Assembly (NCBI RefSeq): GCF_900111575.1
Contig: NZ_FOIF01000012.1
Location: 1 to 43,028, forward strand
Direction of reading: 5' to 3'
Length of the DNA stretch: 43,028 nucleotides
Origin: Anaerobranca gottschalkii DSM 13577
Lineage (GTDB): Bacteria > Bacillota > Proteinivoracia > Proteinivoracales > Proteinivoracaceae
Shown here in pieces: positions 9,613-26,101 of the stretch; the stretch's first letter is position 1, and each line of letters begins with the position of its first letter. A program made the translations under genes and the position numbers. The notes beneath the pieces were generated by a model. That model was not told the origin of the DNA and did not search any database. It was given only the letters and a program-made list of their open reading frames with translations.

Positions 9613-9629
9613 AAGGAAGGATGGTAAAA

Positions 9630-10049
9630 ATGGTGGGAATAGTGATTGTTGCCCATGGCAACTTAGCCCAACAATTTATAAAAACCAGTGAGATGATTTT
9701 AGGTAAACAAAAGAACTTGTTGGCTGTAAATGTATTACCTGAAGATAGTTTGATAGAGCTTCGAGTAAAAGTAAAAGAAGCTATAGAAAAGGTAAAAACA
9801 GCTAATGGAGTCATTATATTCACTGATATTTTTGGAGGCAGTCCCACCAATGCCAGCACTTACTTATTGCTTGATGGAAATGTGAGAGTTATAACTGGAG
9901 TAAACTTAGCTATGCTTCTAGAGACTTTGGCAAATAGAAATAAGTCTTTAGATAGATTGACTCAATTGGCTTATAAAGCAGGGAGTGAAGGTGTCCAAAT
10001 AGTACAAGTAGAACAAAAAGGTGAACAACTTGAATTTAAAGGAGGTTAG
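9630..10049 (+). CDS. Mannose-family PTS EIIA protein, copy 1 (ABC-associated)
   Basis: About 139 residues forming a stand-alone EIIA domain of the mannose/fructose/sorbose PTS family. In EII complexes it takes phosphate from HPr on an N-terminal His and passes it to EIIB. The site is visible as VIVAHGN (His9 from the chosen start), and the family motif DIFGGSPTNAS is at about 70-80. An ATG at 9621 touches the ribosome site AAGGAAGG, whereas ATG 9630 has correct spacing. No EIIB follows; the stop is only three bases before malK, whose ribosome site is inside the last EIIA codons. This suggests a regulatory partner of the ABC importer or a donor in trans for EIIB of operon 2. Confidence 0.9.
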   Translation: MVGIVIVAHGNLAQQFIKTSEMILGKQKNLLAVNVLPEDSLIELRVKVKEAIEKVKTANGVIIFTDIFGGSPTNASTYLLLDGNVRVITGVNLAMLLETLANRNKSLDRLTQLAYKAGSEGVQIVQVEQKGEQLEFKGG

Positions 10050-10052
10050 AAA

Positions 10053-11159
10053 ATGGCAAAAGTTGTTTTGAAAAACATTTCCAAATACTATGGAGATGTA
10101 ATGGCGGTAAATGACTTTAATTTAGAAATCCAAGACAAGGAGTTTTTAGTTTTGGTAGGACCATCCGGTTGTGGTAAATCCACTACTTTAAGGATGATTG
10201 CAGGTCTTGAAGAAATAACCGATGGGGAGCTGTACATAGGAGATAAAAAAGTAAATGATGTTCCCCCTAAAGACAGGGATATAGCAATGGTTTTCCAAAA
10301 TTATGCCTTGTATCCCCATATGAACGTTTATGAAAATATGGCCTTTGGACTTAAGCTTAGAAAATTTAGTAAAAGTGAAATTGACCAAAGGGTGAAAGAA
10401 GCAGCTAGAATTTTAGGAATAGAGAACTTGCTAAAAAGAAAGCCAAAGGAGCTTTCCGGTGGTCAAAGGCAAAGGGTAGCATTAGGTAGAGCTATAGTAA
10501 GGAATCCTCAAGTTTTCTTAATGGATGAGCCTTTATCTAACCTTGATGCTAAATTAAGGGTCCAAATGCGTACAGAAATCAGTAAATTACACCATAGGTT
10601 ACAAACAACAATGATTTATGTAACCCATGATCAAACAGAAGCTATGACTATGGGAGATAGAATTGTAGTTATGAAAGATGGAGTAGTACAACAGGTGGCA
10701 TCACCTCAAGAAATTTACGATAACCCCAAAAACGTCTTTGTTGCAGGTTTTATAGGTTCTCCTGCGATGAATTTCATAGATTCTGTCATAGTAGAAAAGG
10801 ACAGTGACTTGTACTTAAAATTTGCTGGAGTAGAAATAAAAATACCTTCAGGTAAAAGTAAAGTATTAAGAGAAAAGGGTTATGTAGGAAAAGAAGTTAT
10901 CATGGGTATTAGACCTGAAGATCTCCATGATGAACCGGTATTTATTGAAAGTTCACCGGAAAGTGTCATAGAACCAGTAGTAGAAGTAGTTGAAAAAATG
11001 GGAGCAGAAAACTATCTATATCTCGTGTTAGGGGAAGTTCAATTAACAGCTAGGGTAGATGCAAGATCAAAAGCAGTTGTTGATAGTAAAATTAAAGTAG
11101 CTTTAGATATGAATAAAGTCCATATTTTTGATAAAGAAAGTGAAGAATCAGTTTTATAA
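10053..11159 (+). CDS. malK: Sugar ABC transporter ATPase MalK, copy 1
   Basis: A 368-residue MalK/MsmX/UgpC-type ATPase that powers alpha-glucan import on the cytoplasmic face. Seen: Walker [10 protein letters not shown] (36-44), Q-loop Gln82, signature LSGGQ (134-138), Walker B VFLMDEP (154-160), H-loop His192, and a C-terminal regulatory OB/TOBE region (about 235-368). The ribosome site GGAGG lies in the end of the EIIA gene. Copy 2 at 20060 has the same length and is nearly identical in protein; parts are identical in DNA (10509-10657 and 10992-11125), others differ at many silent sites. Cognate permeases are MalF1/MalG1, though such ATPases often serve several importers. Confidence 0.95.
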
Positions 11160-19156: not shown

Positions 19157-19173
19157 AAGGAAGGATGGTTAAC

Positions 19174-19605
19174 ATGGTGGGAATAGTAATTGTAGCCCAT
19201 GGTAATTTGGCTGAACAGTTAATAAAAACAAGTGAAATGATCATGGGTAAGCAAAGGAATTTGATTCCTGTAAATGTTTTGCCTGAAGACAGCTTAATAG
19301 AGCTAAGATCAAAAGTAGCCAATGCCGTTAAAAAGGTCAAAACTGATTACGGTGTTTTAATCCTTACAGATATTTTCGGAGGCAGTCCCACCAATGCCAG
19401 TACTTATTTGTTATTGACAGAGCCTGTGAAAGTGGTAACTGGAATCAATTTATCTATGCTGTTAGAAACCTTGACAAATAGAAATAAACCTTTAAGCATT
19501 TTGGCTGAGATAGCCTATCATGCAGGTAATAAAGGAATACAAATAGTACAAGTTGAACAAAAAGAAGGTGAACAATTTGAATTTAAAGCTGGTACGGATC
19601 GATGA
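19174..19605 (+). CDS. Mannose-family PTS EIIA protein, copy 2 (ABC-associated)
   Basis: About 143 residues, a close paralogue of the EIIA at 9630. The phosphorylation motif is VIVAHGN (His9) and the conserved DIFGGSPTNAS follows. ATG 19165 abuts the ribosome site and ATG 19174 has the right spacing. The 3' end overlaps the EIIB gene by about 29 bases, so the two are translationally coupled. In copy 1 the same C-terminal EFK codons run straight into the malK ribosome site instead, as if EIIB had been removed there. Role as for copy 1: phosphoryl relay from HPr to EIIB, probably sensing PTS state for the ABC operon. Confidence 0.9.
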   Translation: MVGIVIVAHGNLAEQLIKTSEMIMGKQRNLIPVNVLPEDSLIELRSKVANAVKKVKTDYGVLILTDIFGGSPTNASTYLLLTEPVKVVTGINLSMLLETLTNRNKPLSILAEIAYHAGNKGIQIVQVEQKEGEQFEFKAGTDR

Positions 19606-20056
19606 CCGTTTTATTCACGGTCAAGTTGCAGTTGCTTGGACAAAATTTTTAGATATAAATCAAATTATTGTAGCTAATGATGAAGTTGCCAATGATGAAT
19701 TTCAAAAAACTTTAATGGAAATGGCTAAGCCACCTAATGTGCAAGTAGATATTTTATCTATTTCTGAAACAATAGAAAAAATTAATGCAGATTTTTTTAA
19801 AAACAAAAATATAATTCTACTAGTAGATAGTCCTGGAGATATTTTAAAGATGGTTAATGGGGGAGTAGATATTAAAAAAGTAAATATTGGGGGAATGCGG
19901 CATAAAGAAGGCAGGAAACAGATTACCCGTACTGTAGCTTTAAATAATGAAGATAAAGAAACATTTAAAAAACTTGCTAATCTAGGTATTGAATTAGAAC
20001 TTAGAGCTATTCCTACAGATTCAAAAATAAATTTTATGAAACTATTAGGAGGTTAA
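19577..20056 (+). CDS. Mannose-family PTS EIIB protein (ABC-associated)
   Basis: About 159 residues of the mannose/sorbose EIIB family. The phosphorylated His is in VRIDDRFIHGQV (His14 from the chosen start). The domain is complete (usual length about 160). In-frame candidates are TTG 19553, GTG 19568 and TTG 19577; GAAGGTGA (19564-19571) is best spaced to TTG 19577. Four bases separate its stop from malK, whose ribosome site GGAGG is in the EIIB end. The matching EIIC and EIID are not here but at 32581-34054. It may supply phosphate to that permease, to the PRD protein, or act on the transporter. Confidence 0.9.
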   Translation: MNLKLVRIDDRFIHGQVAVAWTKFLDINQIIVANDEVANDEFQKTLMEMAKPPNVQVDILSISETIEKINADFFKNKNIILLVDSPGDILKMVNGGVDIKKVNIGGMRHKEGRKQITRTVALNNEDKETFKKLANLGIELELRAIPTDSKINFMKLLGG

Positions 20057-20059
20057 AAG

Positions 20060-21166
20060 ATGGCAAAAGTAGTTTTAAAAAACATCTCTAAGTATTATGG
20101 AGATGTAATGGCGGTAAATGACTTTAATTTAGAAATTCAGGACAAAGAGTTTATAGTTTTAGTTGGACCTTCCGGTTGTGGTAAGTCTACAACACTTAGG
20201 ATGATTGCAGGTCTTGAAGAAATAACCGATGGAGAACTGTACATTGGAGATAAAAAAGTAAATGACGTTCCACCTAAAGACAGGGATATAGCTATGGTTT
20301 TCCAAAACTATGCCTTGTATCCCCACATGAATGTCTACGAAAACATGGCCTTTGGACTTAAGTTGAGGAAATATAGTAAAGAAGAAATTGACCAAAGGGT
20401 TAAAGAAGCAGCTAGAATTTTAGGAATAGAGAACTTATTAAAAAGAAAGCCTAAGGAACTTTCTGGTGGTCAACGGCAAAGGGTGGCACTAGGTAGGGCT
20501 ATAGTTAGAAATCCACAAGTTTTCTTAATGGATGAGCCTTTATCTAACCTTGATGCTAAATTAAGGGTCCAAATGCGTACAGAAATCAGTAAATTACACC
20601 ATAGGTTACAAACAACAATGATTTATGTAACCCATGATCAAACAGAAGCTATGACTATGGGAGACAGAATTGTAGTTATGAAAGATGGAGTAATACAACA
20701 GGTGGCATCACCTCAAGAAATTTACGATAAACCAAAAAATGTCTTTGTTGCAGGTTTTATTGGTTCACCAGCTATGAATTTTATAAACGCTACTATTATT
20801 GAAAAAGGTAGTGAGTTGTATTTAAAATTTGAACAAGTAGAAATAAAAATTCCTTCAGGTAAAAGTAAAGTATTACGGGAAAAGGGTTATGTAGGAAAAG
20901 AAGTCATCATGGGTATTAGACCTGAAGATTTACATGACGAACCAGTATTTATTGAAAGTTCACCGGAAAGCGTTATAGAACCAGTAGTAGAAGTAGTAGA
21001 AAAAATGGGAGCAGAAAACTATCTATATCTCGTGTTAGGGGAAGTTCAATTAACAGCTAGGGTAGATGCAAGATCAAAAGCAGTTGTTGATAGTAAAATT
21101 AAAGTAGCTTTAGATATGAATAAAGTCCATATCTTTGATAAAGAAAGTGAAGAATCAGTTTTATAA
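20060..21166 (+). CDS. malK: Sugar ABC transporter ATPase MalK, copy 2
   Basis: 368 residues with the same motifs and positions as copy 1 (Walker A 36-44, LSGGQ 134-138, Walker B 154-160, His192, C-terminal regulatory domain). Protein differences cluster around residues 104-109 and 261-275; the last 100 residues are almost identical. It is coupled to the EIIB gene upstream. The two copies probably arose with the whole leader-EIIA-malK module. It should energise MalF2/MalG2, although exchange with copy 1 is likely given their near identity. Confidence 0.95.
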
Positions 21167-21262: not shown

Positions 21263-22150
21263 GTGAAAAAGTTTTCTGTTTTACTTGCTATTCTTATGGT
21301 TTTATTATTAGCTGTTTCAGCTAGTGCTCAAGAGGTTATTTTTGAAATGGCTGACCCAATTGGAGATGCTAAAGGTGATGGAAATTATACCCATCCAACA
21401 TCTGGAGACTTCGGTGATAGAGTAGCTGAAATGTTAGACTTAACTAACTTTAGAGTTACTGATTTAGGAAACAAAGTGGAATTTAGATTGAGCTTTGCTT
21501 TAGAACCAAACTATGTTAATCCATGGGGTGGTGGAGGATTAAACTTCCACAGAATCGATATCTACCTTGTAACTGGAGAAGAGGGAGGCAAAACTGAAAC
21601 CTTTAGAGATGGTGCTTTTGTTAAATTCGCTGAACCTTGGAATAAGTTAATTAAAGTATTAGACTGGGATCGATCTAGAATTTTTACAACCTCTGATGAT
21701 CCTGCCGATGGAGATGCTGGAATTGGAGTAAGTGATGACTTCACTGTTAAAGTAGAAGGTAAAGATATAGTAATAACAGTGGCTAAAAGTATTATTGGTG
21801 AAATTGATCAGTCTACTAAATACTACGTATTAGTAGGTCACCAATGTGAATTTGGTGATGACAATTACAGGGCTGTAGCAGAAGTAGCTGGAGAATGGCA
21901 AGGTGGTGGCGGTGACGATACTAACTTCAATCCAAACGTATATGATATGCTAGCAGAAACTGCTGACGAACAATATAGACAATTAGGTTCATGGGAAATT
22001 GGTAAATTAGCTGTTATTAAACCAGTAGGTGGAAAATCTGCTGGAGCTGCTGGCTCAACAACCACTATCATCGTCGTTGTAGTTGCCCTTGTTGTTATCG
22101 CCGGTGGTGTATACTTCTATATGAAAAAAGGTAAAAAGGTAGCTGCTTAA
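21263..22150 (+). CDS. Membrane-anchored surface glucan-binding protein (glucodextranase C-terminal-like)
   Basis: 295 residues: signal peptide (cleavage near SASA-QE, residue 22), a beta-rich domain, then a short linker (GGKSAGAAGS), one membrane helix and a Lys-rich cytoplasmic tail at the C-terminus. The domain start DPIGDAKGDGNYTHPTSGDFG and NPWGGGGLNFHRIDIYL resemble the C-terminal binding module of glucodextranase (PF09985-like), which binds alpha-glucans at the cell surface. Here it stands alone and carries its own anchor. Its place inside the ABC operon suggests that it holds polysaccharide or the CGTase near the importer (inference). GTG 21263 follows GGGGG. A perfect hairpin follows at 22160. 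Confidence 0.82.
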   Translation: MKKFSVLLAILMVLLLAVSASAQEVIFEMADPIGDAKGDGNYTHPTSGDFGDRVAEMLDLTNFRVTDLGNKVEFRLSFALEPNYVNPWGGGGLNFHRIDIYLVTGEEGGKTETFRDGAFVKFAEPWNKLIKVLDWDRSRIFTTSDDPADGDAGIGVSDDFTVKVEGKDIVITVAKSIIGEIDQSTKYYVLVGHQCEFGDDNYRAVAEVAGEWQGGGGDDTNFNPNVYDMLAETADEQYRQLGSWEIGKLAVIKPVGGKSAGAAGSTTTIIVVVVALVVIAGGVYFYMKKGKKVAA

Positions 22151-22245: not shown

Positions 22246-23940
22246 ATGAATTTAACAACACCTTCTAGCAAAGTACCTACAATCCCTCCCATTAATTTAG
22301 AATTACCTACAGAAGGGAAAAAGGTCTACCTAGTAGATGAAAGTGTTTTGCTCTATTCCATTACTGATGTAGGGAAAAAAATCAAAGAAGGTATTGTTGT
22401 TGTTGCCACTCCTTTTATCCAAAGAATTAAGGATTTAGCCCTAAATGCTGAGGACGAAGGAGTTAAAAAGAAAGCCCAAAAGGCTCTAGCTTTTATTGAA
22501 AAACATAAAGATCAAGGGCAAACTGGGTTTACTGTAAAGAAAAACACCTGGATTTTTGTGGATATCGATTTGCCATATGAAGGAAACGATACCATTTTCC
22601 GAGTTTTTCAGGCCTTTAGCAATACCGAAAAAGACTCACAAGTTATAATAACCACATCTAATGTAAAGGTACAGATTAAAGCTGACAGAGATAAATTACC
22701 TAACTATAGGTTGGTAATAAAACAGCCGCTGTTTAAACGCTATGATTTAAAAGAAACTATATCAGCATATACTTTTTTAGCACCATTTTTAATTATTTTC
22801 TTTACATTCTTAGCCTTTCCTTTCTTTTACTCTATGTTATTGAGTTTTTATGAATGGGATATGGTAAATCCAGCAAAATTTGTTGGACTTGCCAATTATA
22901 AAAGGGCATTATTTAATGACCCCCATTTCTTCTGGGGAATCAGACAAACTTTGTTGTTTGTCATTATAGGAATGCCTTTTGGAATCACAGTCTCGTTAAT
23001 ATTGGCTTTACTTTTAAACAACAGGCTAAAATTTAAAGAAGTTTATAGAACTGCATATTTTTTGCCTAATGTATTAGATATGCTTGTTGTGGCAATAATC
23101 TGGGTATTTATTTATAATCCCCAATATGGTGTTTTGAAAACTGTTTTAGAAAGTATAGGGATAACCTATTTTTCAGAAACAGGGATTTTAGGAAACCATT
23201 TAACAGTAATCCCTGCTATCGTACTAATGACAACTTTAAAAGGGGCAGGGGGAGGTATGATCTTCTTCTTAGCTGCTTTGCAAAATATTCCTAAAGACCT
23301 CTATGAAGCGGCGGAGATAGACGGTGCCTCTTCATTTAGACAGTTTAGAAGTATCACATTGCCGATGATTAAACCTATTATGTTGTTTATGGTAGTTACT
23401 GGTTTTATAGGATCCTTTGGTATGTTTACTGAAATTTATGCTATGACTGGTGGTGGACCTACTGTTCAAAGGGGAGCTGCTAGGGCACAAGGTGAAGTTG
23501 TATTTTATGGAGAGCCAGGAACAGTAATTCCTGAAGGAACAAGGGTAGTTAAACCTCCAGCCTTTGATGGTGATGATACTTATGTTTATATTACCCAAAG
23601 AACTGTAACAATTCCTCAAGGAAGTAATCAAGTGACTGCTAGGGTAAGGGCACAACATACAGGAGAATATTATAATACACAACCCTTTACTATTACCCAA
23701 ATACCTAACCCTCCACCTGGGGTCAATAAAGTGGAAAATCCCGCTGAAATTACAGGTGGTAAAAATGGTGTAACTAGAAGCTTTACAAGAGTTATTGGTT
23801 ATCACATGATGTCAATGGCCTTTTTAAGTGAAAGTCCACAATTTGGTTATGCCGCTGCTATGTCATTTTTGATACTTTTAATAACTTTAGTAATAACCTT
23901 TATAAACTTTAAATTCTTTGGCTCCGGTGTGGAGTACTAG
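22246..23940 (+). CDS. malF: Chimeric MalF-type ABC permease with PIN-like N-domain and baseplate-J-like insertion
   Basis: 564 residues, far longer than usual. Residues 26-154 resemble the PIN domain of PhoH/YlaK proteins: KVYLVDESVLL opening, VVVATPFIQ, a GND (Asp115) motif, and a closing VIITTSNVKVQIKA. Asp31 and Asp115 remain, but the usual Glu and the last Asp (Asn139 here) are lost, so nuclease activity is unlikely. The permease core starts near residue 180, with EAA loop AAEIDGASSFRQFRSITLPM. After EIYAMTGGGP (residue 405) about 104 residues interrupt the family sequence before TRSFTRVIGYHMMSMAF and the last helix. This insert (GTVIPEGTRVV, VTIPQGSNQV, NPPPGVNKVENPAEITGG) resembles the beta domain of phage baseplate J proteins and would lie outside the cell. 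Both domain calls are by eye. Confidence 0.88.
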   Translation: MNLTTPSSKVPTIPPINLELPTEGKKVYLVDESVLLYSITDVGKKIKEGIVVVATPFIQRIKDLALNAEDEGVKKKAQKALAFIEKHKDQGQTGFTVKKNTWIFVDIDLPYEGNDTIFRVFQAFSNTEKDSQVIITTSNVKVQIKADRDKLPNYRLVIKQPLFKRYDLKETISAYTFLAPFLIIFFTFLAFPFFYSMLLSFYEWDMVNPAKFVGLANYKRALFNDPHFFWGIRQTLLFVIIGMPFGITVSLILALLLNNRLKFKEVYRTAYFLPNVLDMLVVAIIWVFIYNPQYGVLKTVLESIGITYFSETGILGNHLTVIPAIVLMTTLKGAGGGMIFFLAALQNIPKDLYEAAEIDGASSFRQFRSITLPMIKPIMLFMVVTGFIGSFGMFTEIYAMTGGGPTVQRGAARAQGEVVFYGEPGTVIPEGTRVVKPPAFDGDDTYVYITQRTVTIPQGSNQVTARVRAQHTGEYYNTQPFTITQIPNPPPGVNKVENPAEITGGKNGVTRSFTRVIGYHMMSMAFLSESPQFGYAAAMSFLILLITLVITFINFKFFGSGVEY

Positions 23941-23951
23941 GGGGTGAAGCG

Positions 23952-24794
23952 ATGAGTGTTGAAAGAAAAGATCTATGGTATTACATTAAATATATTCTAA
24001 TTTACACATTATTGACCCTTGGAGCAATATTTGTCCTCTTTCCCTTCTTTTGGATGTTATCTACTGCTTTTAAACCCTTAGGAACCCACTTTACCATCCC
24101 CATTGAGTGGATTCCCCGTAATCCCACATTAGAAAACTACAGAATTGTTTTTAGGGAATATGCTTTTGGTAGGGCATTTTTCAACTCCTTTATAGTTTCA
24201 GTTTCAGCTGCGGTAATGGTGGCAACTATGTCTACTATGGCGGGGTATGCCTTTGGTAAGAAGAATTTCCCTGGTAGAGATCAATTGTTTTGGTTGCTGC
24301 TTTCAACAATGATGATCCCAGGCTTGATGTTTATGATTCCCCAGTTTATAGTAGTGAGAAACTTGGGGTGGATGAACACCTATAGGGCAATGTTTTTACC
24401 CCATACTGCAAATGTCTTTTTCGTCTTTTTAGTTCGCCAATACGTGAAAACAATACCTAATGAGCTTCTAGATGCAGCTAGGATTGATGGTGCAGGGGAG
24501 TGGCTAGCCTTTAGAAATATTATTTTACCATTGGCAAAACCAATTATTGCAACAATGTTTTTATTGACCTTTCAAGGTCAATGGACTAACTTCTTATGGC
24601 AGTACATCGTTGCACCTAGGGAATCGATGATGACTTTACCCGTAGCTTTAGCCAGGTTTCAAGGGCAATATGGTACTTATTGGACATTGATTATGGCTGC
24701 CGGGTCCCTATCTATCATTCCTATAGCTATTATCTTCTTATTTGCCCAGAAGTACTTCATTGAAGGTATACAGATGGGGGCTATTAAAGGTTAA
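23952..24794 (+). CDS. malG: Sugar ABC permease MalG, operon 2
   Basis: A 280-residue six-helix permease paired with the chimeric MalF. The EAA motif is LLDAARIDGAGEWLAFRNIILPLAKP, and the C-terminal EGIQMGAIKG is of MalG type. Start ATG 23952 follows GGGGGTGAAG. It has no unusual insertions, so the odd architecture of this importer is confined to MalF. The gene lies 11 bp after malF2 and 23 bp before the lipoprotein gene. Confidence 0.93.
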   Translation: MSVERKDLWYYIKYILIYTLLTLGAIFVLFPFFWMLSTAFKPLGTHFTIPIEWIPRNPTLENYRIVFREYAFGRAFFNSFIVSVSAAVMVATMSTMAGYAFGKKNFPGRDQLFWLLLSTMMIPGLMFMIPQFIVVRNLGWMNTYRAMFLPHTANVFFVFLVRQYVKTIPNELLDAARIDGAGEWLAFRNIILPLAKPIIATMFLLTFQGQWTNFLWQYIVAPRESMMTLPVALARFQGQYGTYWTLIMAAGSLSIIPIAIIFLFAQKYFIEGIQMGAIKG

Positions 24795-24817: not shown

Positions 24818-26101
24818 ATGAAGAGTTTTTCTAAAATTTTAACCATTGGACTTCTTGCTGTCTTCACTTTAACAGGTTGTTTTGGAGGCAGTAAAACTTC
24901 TGGAGAATATGAATTACCTCCAGAGAGAGAACCAGGTACAAAAGTAGAACTTACTTTATGGGAAACCTATAACAATGAAGAGCATGCCGTTTTTATGGAG
25001 ATTGTTAGAAAGTTTGAAGCTCAAAATCCTGATATTAAAATTAATGTAGAGAGGATTCCGTGGGGCGGTCACTGGGGAAGAATAGCGACAGGTCTTGCTG
25101 TTAACGAAACTCCAGATATCGCTAGGGTAGACGTAGCTTATGTAGCTACTTTAGCAGACAGGGGAGCTATAGTTAATTTAGATTTATTAGGTGCTGATAA
25201 AGTTGTTAATGAATATGTAGATGCTGCTATTCATTCAAATATTTTCCGGGGTAGTGTGTGGGGCTTACCTGACCAAACAAACACCACAGTACTTTTTTAT
25301 AACAAAACATTATTTGATGAAGCTGGTGTTGATTATCCAACTTTTGAATGGACATGGGATGATTTAATTGAAGCAGGTAAAAAAATTACAGGAATTAGAC
25401 CTGGGATATATGGATTTGCTATGGGTAATACCCTTTGGGAAACATTCCCATATTTCGGAACCTTTGGTGCTAAATTTTTAAATGAAGATGGAACTAAATG
25501 TATCCTTGATTCTCCTGAAGGTATTCAAGCATTAAGTTTAAAGGTAAGTTTAAACCGTGAACATGGAATTGAAGCTGGAGCTTGGAGAGAAGGTGCAGTT
25601 GGGGCGGAAGACGGATTCTTAGCTCAACAATATGCTATGATTATTACTGGTCCTTGGAAAATAGCGGAATATAGAAATGCTGGTATTGATTTTGGAATTT
25701 CTCTAGTTCCTAGAGGACCAGCTGGTACTGCATCTAACGTAGGTGGTACTAATATGGTTATTTTCCGTAATTCAAGATATCCAAGGGAAGCCTATCAATT
25801 CTTAAGATTCTTAACCAGTGTTGAAATGCAAGCTTACTGGGCAAATGAATTAGGCCAAATTCCTGTAAATAAAGGGGCCTTTGACCTTGTAGATACTGAT
25901 AAAAATCCATATCTAGAAGTTTTAATGGAACAAGCAAAATACGCCATTGCAAGACCAGTTTTAGTAAACTATGCTAGGGTTGAAGAAATTATCAATGCTG
26001 AAATGGCCTTAGCTTTAAGGGGAGAAAAGAGTCCAGCTCAAGCTTTAAGGGATGCCGTTAAAGCGATAAATGAAGATCCAGATATCTTTCCTAAAAATTA
26101 A
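24818..26101 (+). CDS. Sugar-binding lipoprotein, operon 2
   Basis: A 427-residue family 1 solute-binding protein with lipobox LTGC (Cys21) and a typical fold: LTLWETYNNEEHAVFMEIVRKF start, DIARVDVAYVATLADRG, VLFYNKTLFDEAG, IITGPWKIAEYRNAG and a C-terminal helical tail. It delivers sugar to MalF2/MalG2. It is distinct from the operon 1 lipoprotein and placed last in the operon, not ahead of the permeases. AAAGGAGG precedes ATG 24818. Many aromatic residues suit an oligosaccharide ligand, but specificity cannot be read from sequence. A terminator follows. Confidence 0.92.
   Translation: MKSFSKILTIGLLAVFTLTGCFGGSKTSGEYELPPEREPGTKVELTLWETYNNEEHAVFMEIVRKFEAQNPDIKINVERIPWGGHWGRIATGLAVNETPDIARVDVAYVATLADRGAIVNLDLLGADKVVNEYVDAAIHSNIFRGSVWGLPDQTNTTVLFYNKTLFDEAGVDYPTFEWTWDDLIEAGKKITGIRPGIYGFAMGNTLWETFPYFGTFGAKFLNEDGTKCILDSPEGIQALSLKVSLNREHGIEAGAWREGAVGAEDGFLAQQYAMIITGPWKIAEYRNAGIDFGISLVPRGPAGTASNVGGTNMVIFRNSRYPREAYQFLRFLTSVEMQAYWANELGQIPVNKGAFDLVDTDKNPYLEVLMEQAKYAIARPVLVNYARVEEIINAEMALALRGEKSPAQALRDAVKAINEDPDIFPKN

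What the first reader, a model, noticed from the sequence alone, without database searches (positions are those of the whole stretch)
23464..23773. Phage baseplate-J-like beta domain inserted in the last extracellular loop of MalF2
Seen: the family sequence EIYAMTGGGP stops at residue 405 and resumes about 104 residues later at TRSFTRVIGYHMMSMAF. The insert has no hydrophobic helix and contains FYGEPGTVIPEGTRVV, VTIPQGSNQVTARV and NPPPGVNKVENPAEITGG, matching the pattern of the baseplate J/gp47 N-terminal beta domain (GTVIPAGT, VTIPAGxxxVxVPVxA, PPGVxxVxNPxxxxGG). It would face outside, where the binding protein docks. Inference: an analogue of the E. coli MalF P2 loop that captures the binding lipoprotein, the surface glucan-binding protein or polysaccharide. 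This domain swap in an ABC importer looks undescribed.
Basis: partly seen in the sequence, partly recalled or inferred. Interest (0 to 1): 0.85.

Follow-up and report, generated by a model that had tools for sequence, protein, structure and literature searches.

The report
Phage baseplate domain inside sugar importer
One membrane subunit of a bacterial sugar importer carries, in a loop on the cell's outside, a small domain taken from the tail baseplate of a phage, plus a seemingly dead nuclease-type domain on the inside; both are kept by selection in two species, but what they do is untested.

Summary
Confirmed. MalF2 (22246-23940, 564 aa) is a six-helix CUT1 permease subunit. About 105 residues sit between its TGGGP motif (405) and the last helix, where relatives have only a few. 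The insert matches Baseplate_J (PF04865) at 6.6e-14 and phrog_6 at 4.4e-17. AlphaFold2 models it at pLDDT 89; the 21 best PDB fold matches are all contractile-tail baseplate proteins (top: phiCD508, 1.4 A). It is the 'wing' domain, which in phage J/Tri2 proteins is itself an inserted, partner-contacting domain. It is the only Baseplate_J match in the genome, so not prophage debris. The fusion is colinear in the other held species of the genus (92% identical), the insert under purifying selection (dN/dS 0.096) with a 51-residue stretch free of amino-acid change. About 780 genomes of the phylum showed no other case. Function is inferred: most likely an extracellular docking arm for lipoprotein SBP2, analogous to, but placed differently from, E. 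coli MalF P2. Binding of the anchored glucan-binding protein, or mere tolerance, is not excluded. New variant of a known kind.

The parts
22246..23940 (+). malF2: CUT1 ABC permease subunit, 564 aa, with two added domains
   Evidence: BPD_transp_1 2.2e-16 over residues 246-405; best PDB relatives SugA and MalF; six helices
23461..23775 (+). insert in the helix 5 - helix 6 extracellular loop (residues 406-510)
   Evidence: alignment with 11 MalF homologues
23467..23763 (+). baseplate J wing domain (residues 408-506)
   Evidence: PF04865 6.6e-14; phrog_6 4.4e-17; AF2 pLDDT 89; Foldseek to phiCD508, phi812, Mu, diffocin baseplates
23527..23679 (+). 51-codon stretch of the insert (residues 428-478) without amino-acid change between the two species despite many synonymous changes
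   Evidence: permutation p about 0.003
22327..22698 (+). N-terminal PhoH2-type PIN domain (residues 28-151), active site mostly lost, expected inside the cell
   Evidence: PF13638 8.2e-7, 9.5e-7 in the sister species; alignment; fold
23952..24794 (+). malG2, partner permease subunit, ordinary architecture
   Evidence: BPD_transp_1 1.6e-18
24818..26101 (+). SBP2, substrate-binding lipoprotein; proposed partner of the wing
   Evidence: SBP_bac_8 2.9e-42; orthologues in the family
21263..22150 (+). membrane-anchored Glucodextran_C protein; alternative partner
   Evidence: PF09985 6.6e-47; conserved next to SBP2 in the family
20060..21166 (+). malK2, ATPase
   Evidence: UgpC/MalK family 6e-152

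Best explanation
MalF2 is a working-type maltodextrin permease subunit that captured the wing domain of a phage baseplate J (gp47/Tri2) protein in its extracellular P3 loop, before the split of the two species. The wing is kept as a fixed docking arm next to the substrate entrance. Its most likely partner is the substrate-binding lipoprotein SBP2, encoded two genes downstream, so that the arm holds SBP2 close to the MalF2-MalG2 gate, doing for this transporter what the unrelated P2 domain does for E. coli MalF. Shown: identity, fold, position, conservation and selection (identity about 0.97). Inferred: partner and docking role (about 0.4).
For: Profile and fold identity. Domain ends match the wing's own boundaries: from GxTRKxA to TGG, without the DxExD that follows in J. 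Extracellular loop before helix 6, next to where the binding protein docks in type I importers (PMC11414716). Same protein in the sister species, dN/dS 0.096 in the insert, p about 2e-13 against neutrality; 51-residue invariant stretch. EAA motif and MalG2/MalK2/SBP2 intact in one gene run. Wings in phages are protein-contact domains: hub-hydrolase in diffocin (PMC10996793), sheath in phiCD508 (PMC11948020). P2 of E. coli MalF binds MalE throughout the cycle (Daus 2009, title cited in PMC3328499).
Against: No binding data and no complex prediction. Purifying selection may only keep the fold. The insert could hinder docking as well as help it. SBP2 exists in other genera without MalF2, so it did not arise with the wing. 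Only two genomes carry the fusion.
Confidence: 0.45

Rival explanations
1. The wing is a tolerated insertion without a binding role: it came in by chance, its ends are close enough not to disturb helices 5 and 6, and selection now only keeps it folded.
For: The site after GGP varies in length among MalF proteins; the wing is a self-contained insertion domain in its own family (PMC10996793); dN/dS of the insert (0.096) is higher than that of the membrane core (0.014).
Against: Retained over a divergence with dS about 0.65; a 51-residue stretch invariant in sequence, including loops, is more than fold maintenance would be expected to need.
Confidence: 0.25
2. The wing binds the neighbouring membrane-anchored Glucodextran_C protein, or a glucan or cell-wall polymer directly, concentrating substrate at the entrance.
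For: Glucodextran_C gene directly upstream and conserved beside SBP2 in the family; the operon region encodes starch-active enzymes.
Against: No carbohydrate-binding family hit in the insert, no Trp in it; wings are known for protein contacts, not sugar contacts, in the papers read.
Confidence: 0.2
3. MalF2 has become a sensor: the wing reports docking outside, the inactive PIN domain inside passes it to RNA or to the PTS or ATPase proteins.
For: Added domains on both faces of the same subunit; EIIA and EIIB genes in the same run.
Against: No effector or known pathway; the N-terminal part is the fastest changing part (dN/dS 0.234).
Confidence: 0.08
4. Assembly or gene-calling artefact, or prophage remnant.
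For: None beyond rarity.
Against: Open frame through both junctions; same protein in a second species with mostly synonymous differences; only Baseplate_J match in the genome.
Confidence: 0.01

Closest known systems
Baseplate J / gp47 / Tri2 wing domain (PF04865 N-terminal part; diffocin CD1371, phiCD508 gp65, Mu baseplate 9ki1)
   Same: Sequence family, fold (1.4-2.8 A) and domain limits; an inserted domain in both settings
   Different: Here it is alone, without the rest of J, and lies in the outer loop of a host transporter
E. coli MalF with its P2 domain
   Same: MalF-type subunit with an extra folded domain on the outside of the membrane
   Different: P2 lies between helices 3 and 4 of an eight-helix MalF; this domain lies before the last helix of a six-helix one and has a phage origin
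Scoop loop (P3) of MalG, SugB, PotC
   Same: Corresponding loop between helices 5 and 6
   Different: In the MalF-type subunit and 105 residues longer; no evidence that it enters the binding protein
PhoH2-type PIN domain (PF13638)
   Same: Sequence over the full domain and predicted fold
   Different: Fused to a permease instead of a PhoH ATPase; most acidic residues lost
Thermotogales MalG1/MalG2 with a unique hydrophilic region (PMC2246101)
   Same: Lineage-specific extra region in a maltose permease
   Different: Different subunit and origin; function of that region also unknown

Membership tests
Baseplate_J wing domain (PF04865) | Profile match above the curated cut-off | tested here: met
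   52.2 bits against 21.1
Baseplate_J wing domain (PF04865) | Fold of the wing in solved baseplates | tested here: met
   Foldseek TM 0.76, 1.4 A to 9g8s; model alignment contained phage wings
Complete baseplate J protein | Core bundle before and dimerisation part after the wing | tested here: not met
   only profile positions 17-110 of 255 matched
CUT1 ABC permease subunit (MalF/UgpA type) | Six helices, EAA motif, permease profile | tested here: met
MalF P2-type docking domain | Position between helices 3 and 4 | tested here: not met
   insert is between helices 5 and 6
MalF P2-type docking domain | Binds the substrate-binding protein | not testable with these tools
   no binding or complex data
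PIN domain (PF13638) | Profile match above cut-off and PIN fold | tested here: met
   29.8 bits against 21.9; Foldseek top hits PIN domains, model pLDDT 74 from a PIN-seeded alignment
Active PIN nuclease (PhoH2 type) | Four conserved acidic active-site residues | tested here: not met
   first Asp kept (D30); Glu of the second motif is Arg; third and fourth Asp are Asn here, Arg and Asp in the sister species

The most novel reading that the evidence does not exclude
MalF2 is a two-faced transporter-sensor: the phage wing outside senses docking or surface glucan, and the pseudo-PIN inside passes that state to RNA or to PTS or ATPase proteins, so an importer was turned into a receptor by capture of a phage domain and a nuclease domain.
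Probability: 0.08. Interest if true: 0.85.

Novelty: new variant of a known kind. Interest (0 to 1): 0.62.

Why it matters
It is a clear case of a contractile-phage structural domain domesticated into an unrelated host membrane machine, in the loop next to where type I ABC importers engage their binding protein. It shows that the P3 loop of MalF-type subunits tolerates a whole folded domain, and offers a natural experiment on what drives binding-protein docking in importers that lack the E. coli P2 domain. The N-terminal pseudo-PIN adds a second unexplained capture in the same subunit.

Tried and rejected
Prophage debris: rejected, no other Baseplate_J in the genome. Assembly artefact: rejected by the second species. 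Common MalF loop: rejected, none of the homologues compared carries it, and wing-type hits lay in reading frames of about 350-530 aa and helix-6-type hits in separate frames; no hit other than those of the two genus members spanned both. Search of viral contigs with the insert as single sequence: nothing confirmed. PIN homologue search with the single sequence gave three weak hits, all spurious on inspection. Genome-contig scan with MalF2: one distant MalF only. Whole-protein structure prediction was not run: mixed alignments placed the PIN rows wrongly, so the last job went to the PIN domain. No paper found on a baseplate-permease fusion. No single phage donor stands out: best matches are all 30-39% identical.

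Full report
Observation. The finding lies in a 564-residue reading frame, 22246-23940 on the + strand. Its core is a binding-protein-dependent permease (BPD_transp_1, 2.2e-16) with an intact EAA motif. Its closest solved relatives are mycobacterial SugA-type subunits, then E. coli MalF; its closest curated family is UgpA, below cut-off. Hydropathy gives six helices, the last at 535-553. Aligned with eleven MalF homologues, one clean block of about 105 residues follows TGGGP405 and ends before TRSFTRVIGYHMMSMAF; the homologues have a few residues there. So the insert is real and lies in the loop between helices 5 and 6, on the outer face by the established topology of this family.

Identity of the insert. 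Pfam Baseplate_J matches residues 408-506 at 6.6e-14, 52.2 bits against a cut-off of 21.1, covering profile positions 17-110 of 255. PHROG 6 (baseplate wedge subunit) matches at 4.4e-17. tblastn finds relatives in 40 phage records, most of them annotated as baseplate proteins, and J proteins in other genomes of the phylum are 30-39% identical. AlphaFold2 with 36 phage wings in the alignment gives mean pLDDT 89, above 90 for 86 of 117 residues. All 14 PDB matches with E <= 0.001 are contractile-tail baseplate proteins: phiCD508 (1.4 A, TM 0.76), phi812, A-1(L), diffocin, Mu, 7-7-1, Milano, AFP; the named viral-library hits are nearly all of the same kind. The model alignment contains phage sequences, which favours this fold, but the profile hits are independent of it.

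What that domain is in phages. [quoted passage not shown] In phiCD508 the gp65a wing contacts sheath domain III and varies in conformation (PMC11948020). That the matched segment is this wing is my reading of the residue range (80-167 of CD1371) together with these descriptions. A domain that is already an insertion is suited to capture by another loop. The captured piece begins at the residues matching GxTRKxA of J and ends at TGG; the DxExD that follows in J is absent.

It is kept. The only other held genome of the genus has the same architecture, 564 residues, 92% identical, without gaps. dN/dS is 0.014 for residues 161-405, 0.096 for the insert and 0.234 for the N-terminal part; the excess of synonymous change in the insert has p about 2e-13. 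Residues 428-478 contain no amino-acid change among many synonymous ones (permutation p about 0.003). The genome has no other Baseplate_J match.

How rare. A query joining the end of helix 5, the insert and helix 6 was run against 398, 399 and 17 genomes of the phylum (about 780 different genomes judged by handle numbers). Only the two genus members match across both parts. Elsewhere the wing part lies in frames of about 350-530 aa and the helix-6 part in separate frames. A wing too diverged for the first-look filter could have been missed, and other phyla were not searched this way.

A second added domain. Residues 28-151 match PIN_4 (PF13638) at 8.2e-7 here and 9.5e-7 in the sister species, above the curated cut-off. 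They align with PhoH2-type PIN domains over their length. A model (pLDDT 74, alignment seeded with PIN domains) matches PIN structures first. The first Asp is kept; the Glu of the second motif is Arg; the third and fourth Asp are Asn here, Arg and Asp in the sister species. An inactive, repurposed PIN domain is likely (inference). With six helices the N-terminus is expected inside.

Neighbourhood. The gene run is EIIA-Man, EIIB, MalK2, a membrane-anchored Glucodextran_C protein, MalF2, MalG2, SBP2. In two other genera of the family the Glucodextran_C protein and an SBP2 orthologue (44% and 42%) sit side by side at the corresponding site, with the same downstream transporter and thioredoxin reductase genes, but without MalF2, MalG2 and MalK2. 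The permease pair is therefore peculiar to this genus at this locus; loss in the others or gain here cannot be decided.

How it may work. Shown: identity, place, conservation, selection. Inferred: the partner. In type I importers the same loop of the partner subunit enters the binding protein (scoop loop, PMC11414716), and E. coli MalF uses a different extra domain, P2, to contact MalE (Daus et al. 2009, by its title as cited in PMC3328499). By position and by what wings do in phages, an extracellular protein-docking arm for SBP2 is the best single guess, at about 0.4. A bystander insertion, binding of the glucan-binding protein or a polymer, and a sensor role are the alternatives. A near-repeat ACTGGTGGT / ACAGGTGGT at the two ends (23446 and 23752) would fit capture by short homology, but both encode conserved TGG motifs, so it may be coincidence.

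Verdict.

Noticed in passing
   Followed up: yes
9621-11159 and 19165-21166: Mannose-family PTS EIIA genes (70% identical to each other) stand directly before or near two MalK genes (96% identical proteins); suggests PTS control of the importer ATPase and gene conversion between the copies.
   Followed up: partly
L181:1262-2857 (sister species): EIIB and MalK are one continuous reading frame of 531 aa, because the EIIB stop codon seen in the window is absent (LLGGKKMAKVV).
   Followed up: partly
L179 and L180 (other genera of the family): Glucodextran_C protein and an SBP2 orthologue are kept side by side without any permease or ATPase gene next to them; a lone binding-protein pair of unknown use.
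   Followed up: partly
23446-23454 and 23752-23760: Near-identical ACTGGTGGT / ACAGGTGGT at the two ends of the insert, both coding for TGG; possible trace of capture by short homology.
   Followed up: no
L027:268-2397 (G002): A 710-aa MalF-type permease whose long N-terminal part has no Pfam family above cut-off.
   Followed up: no
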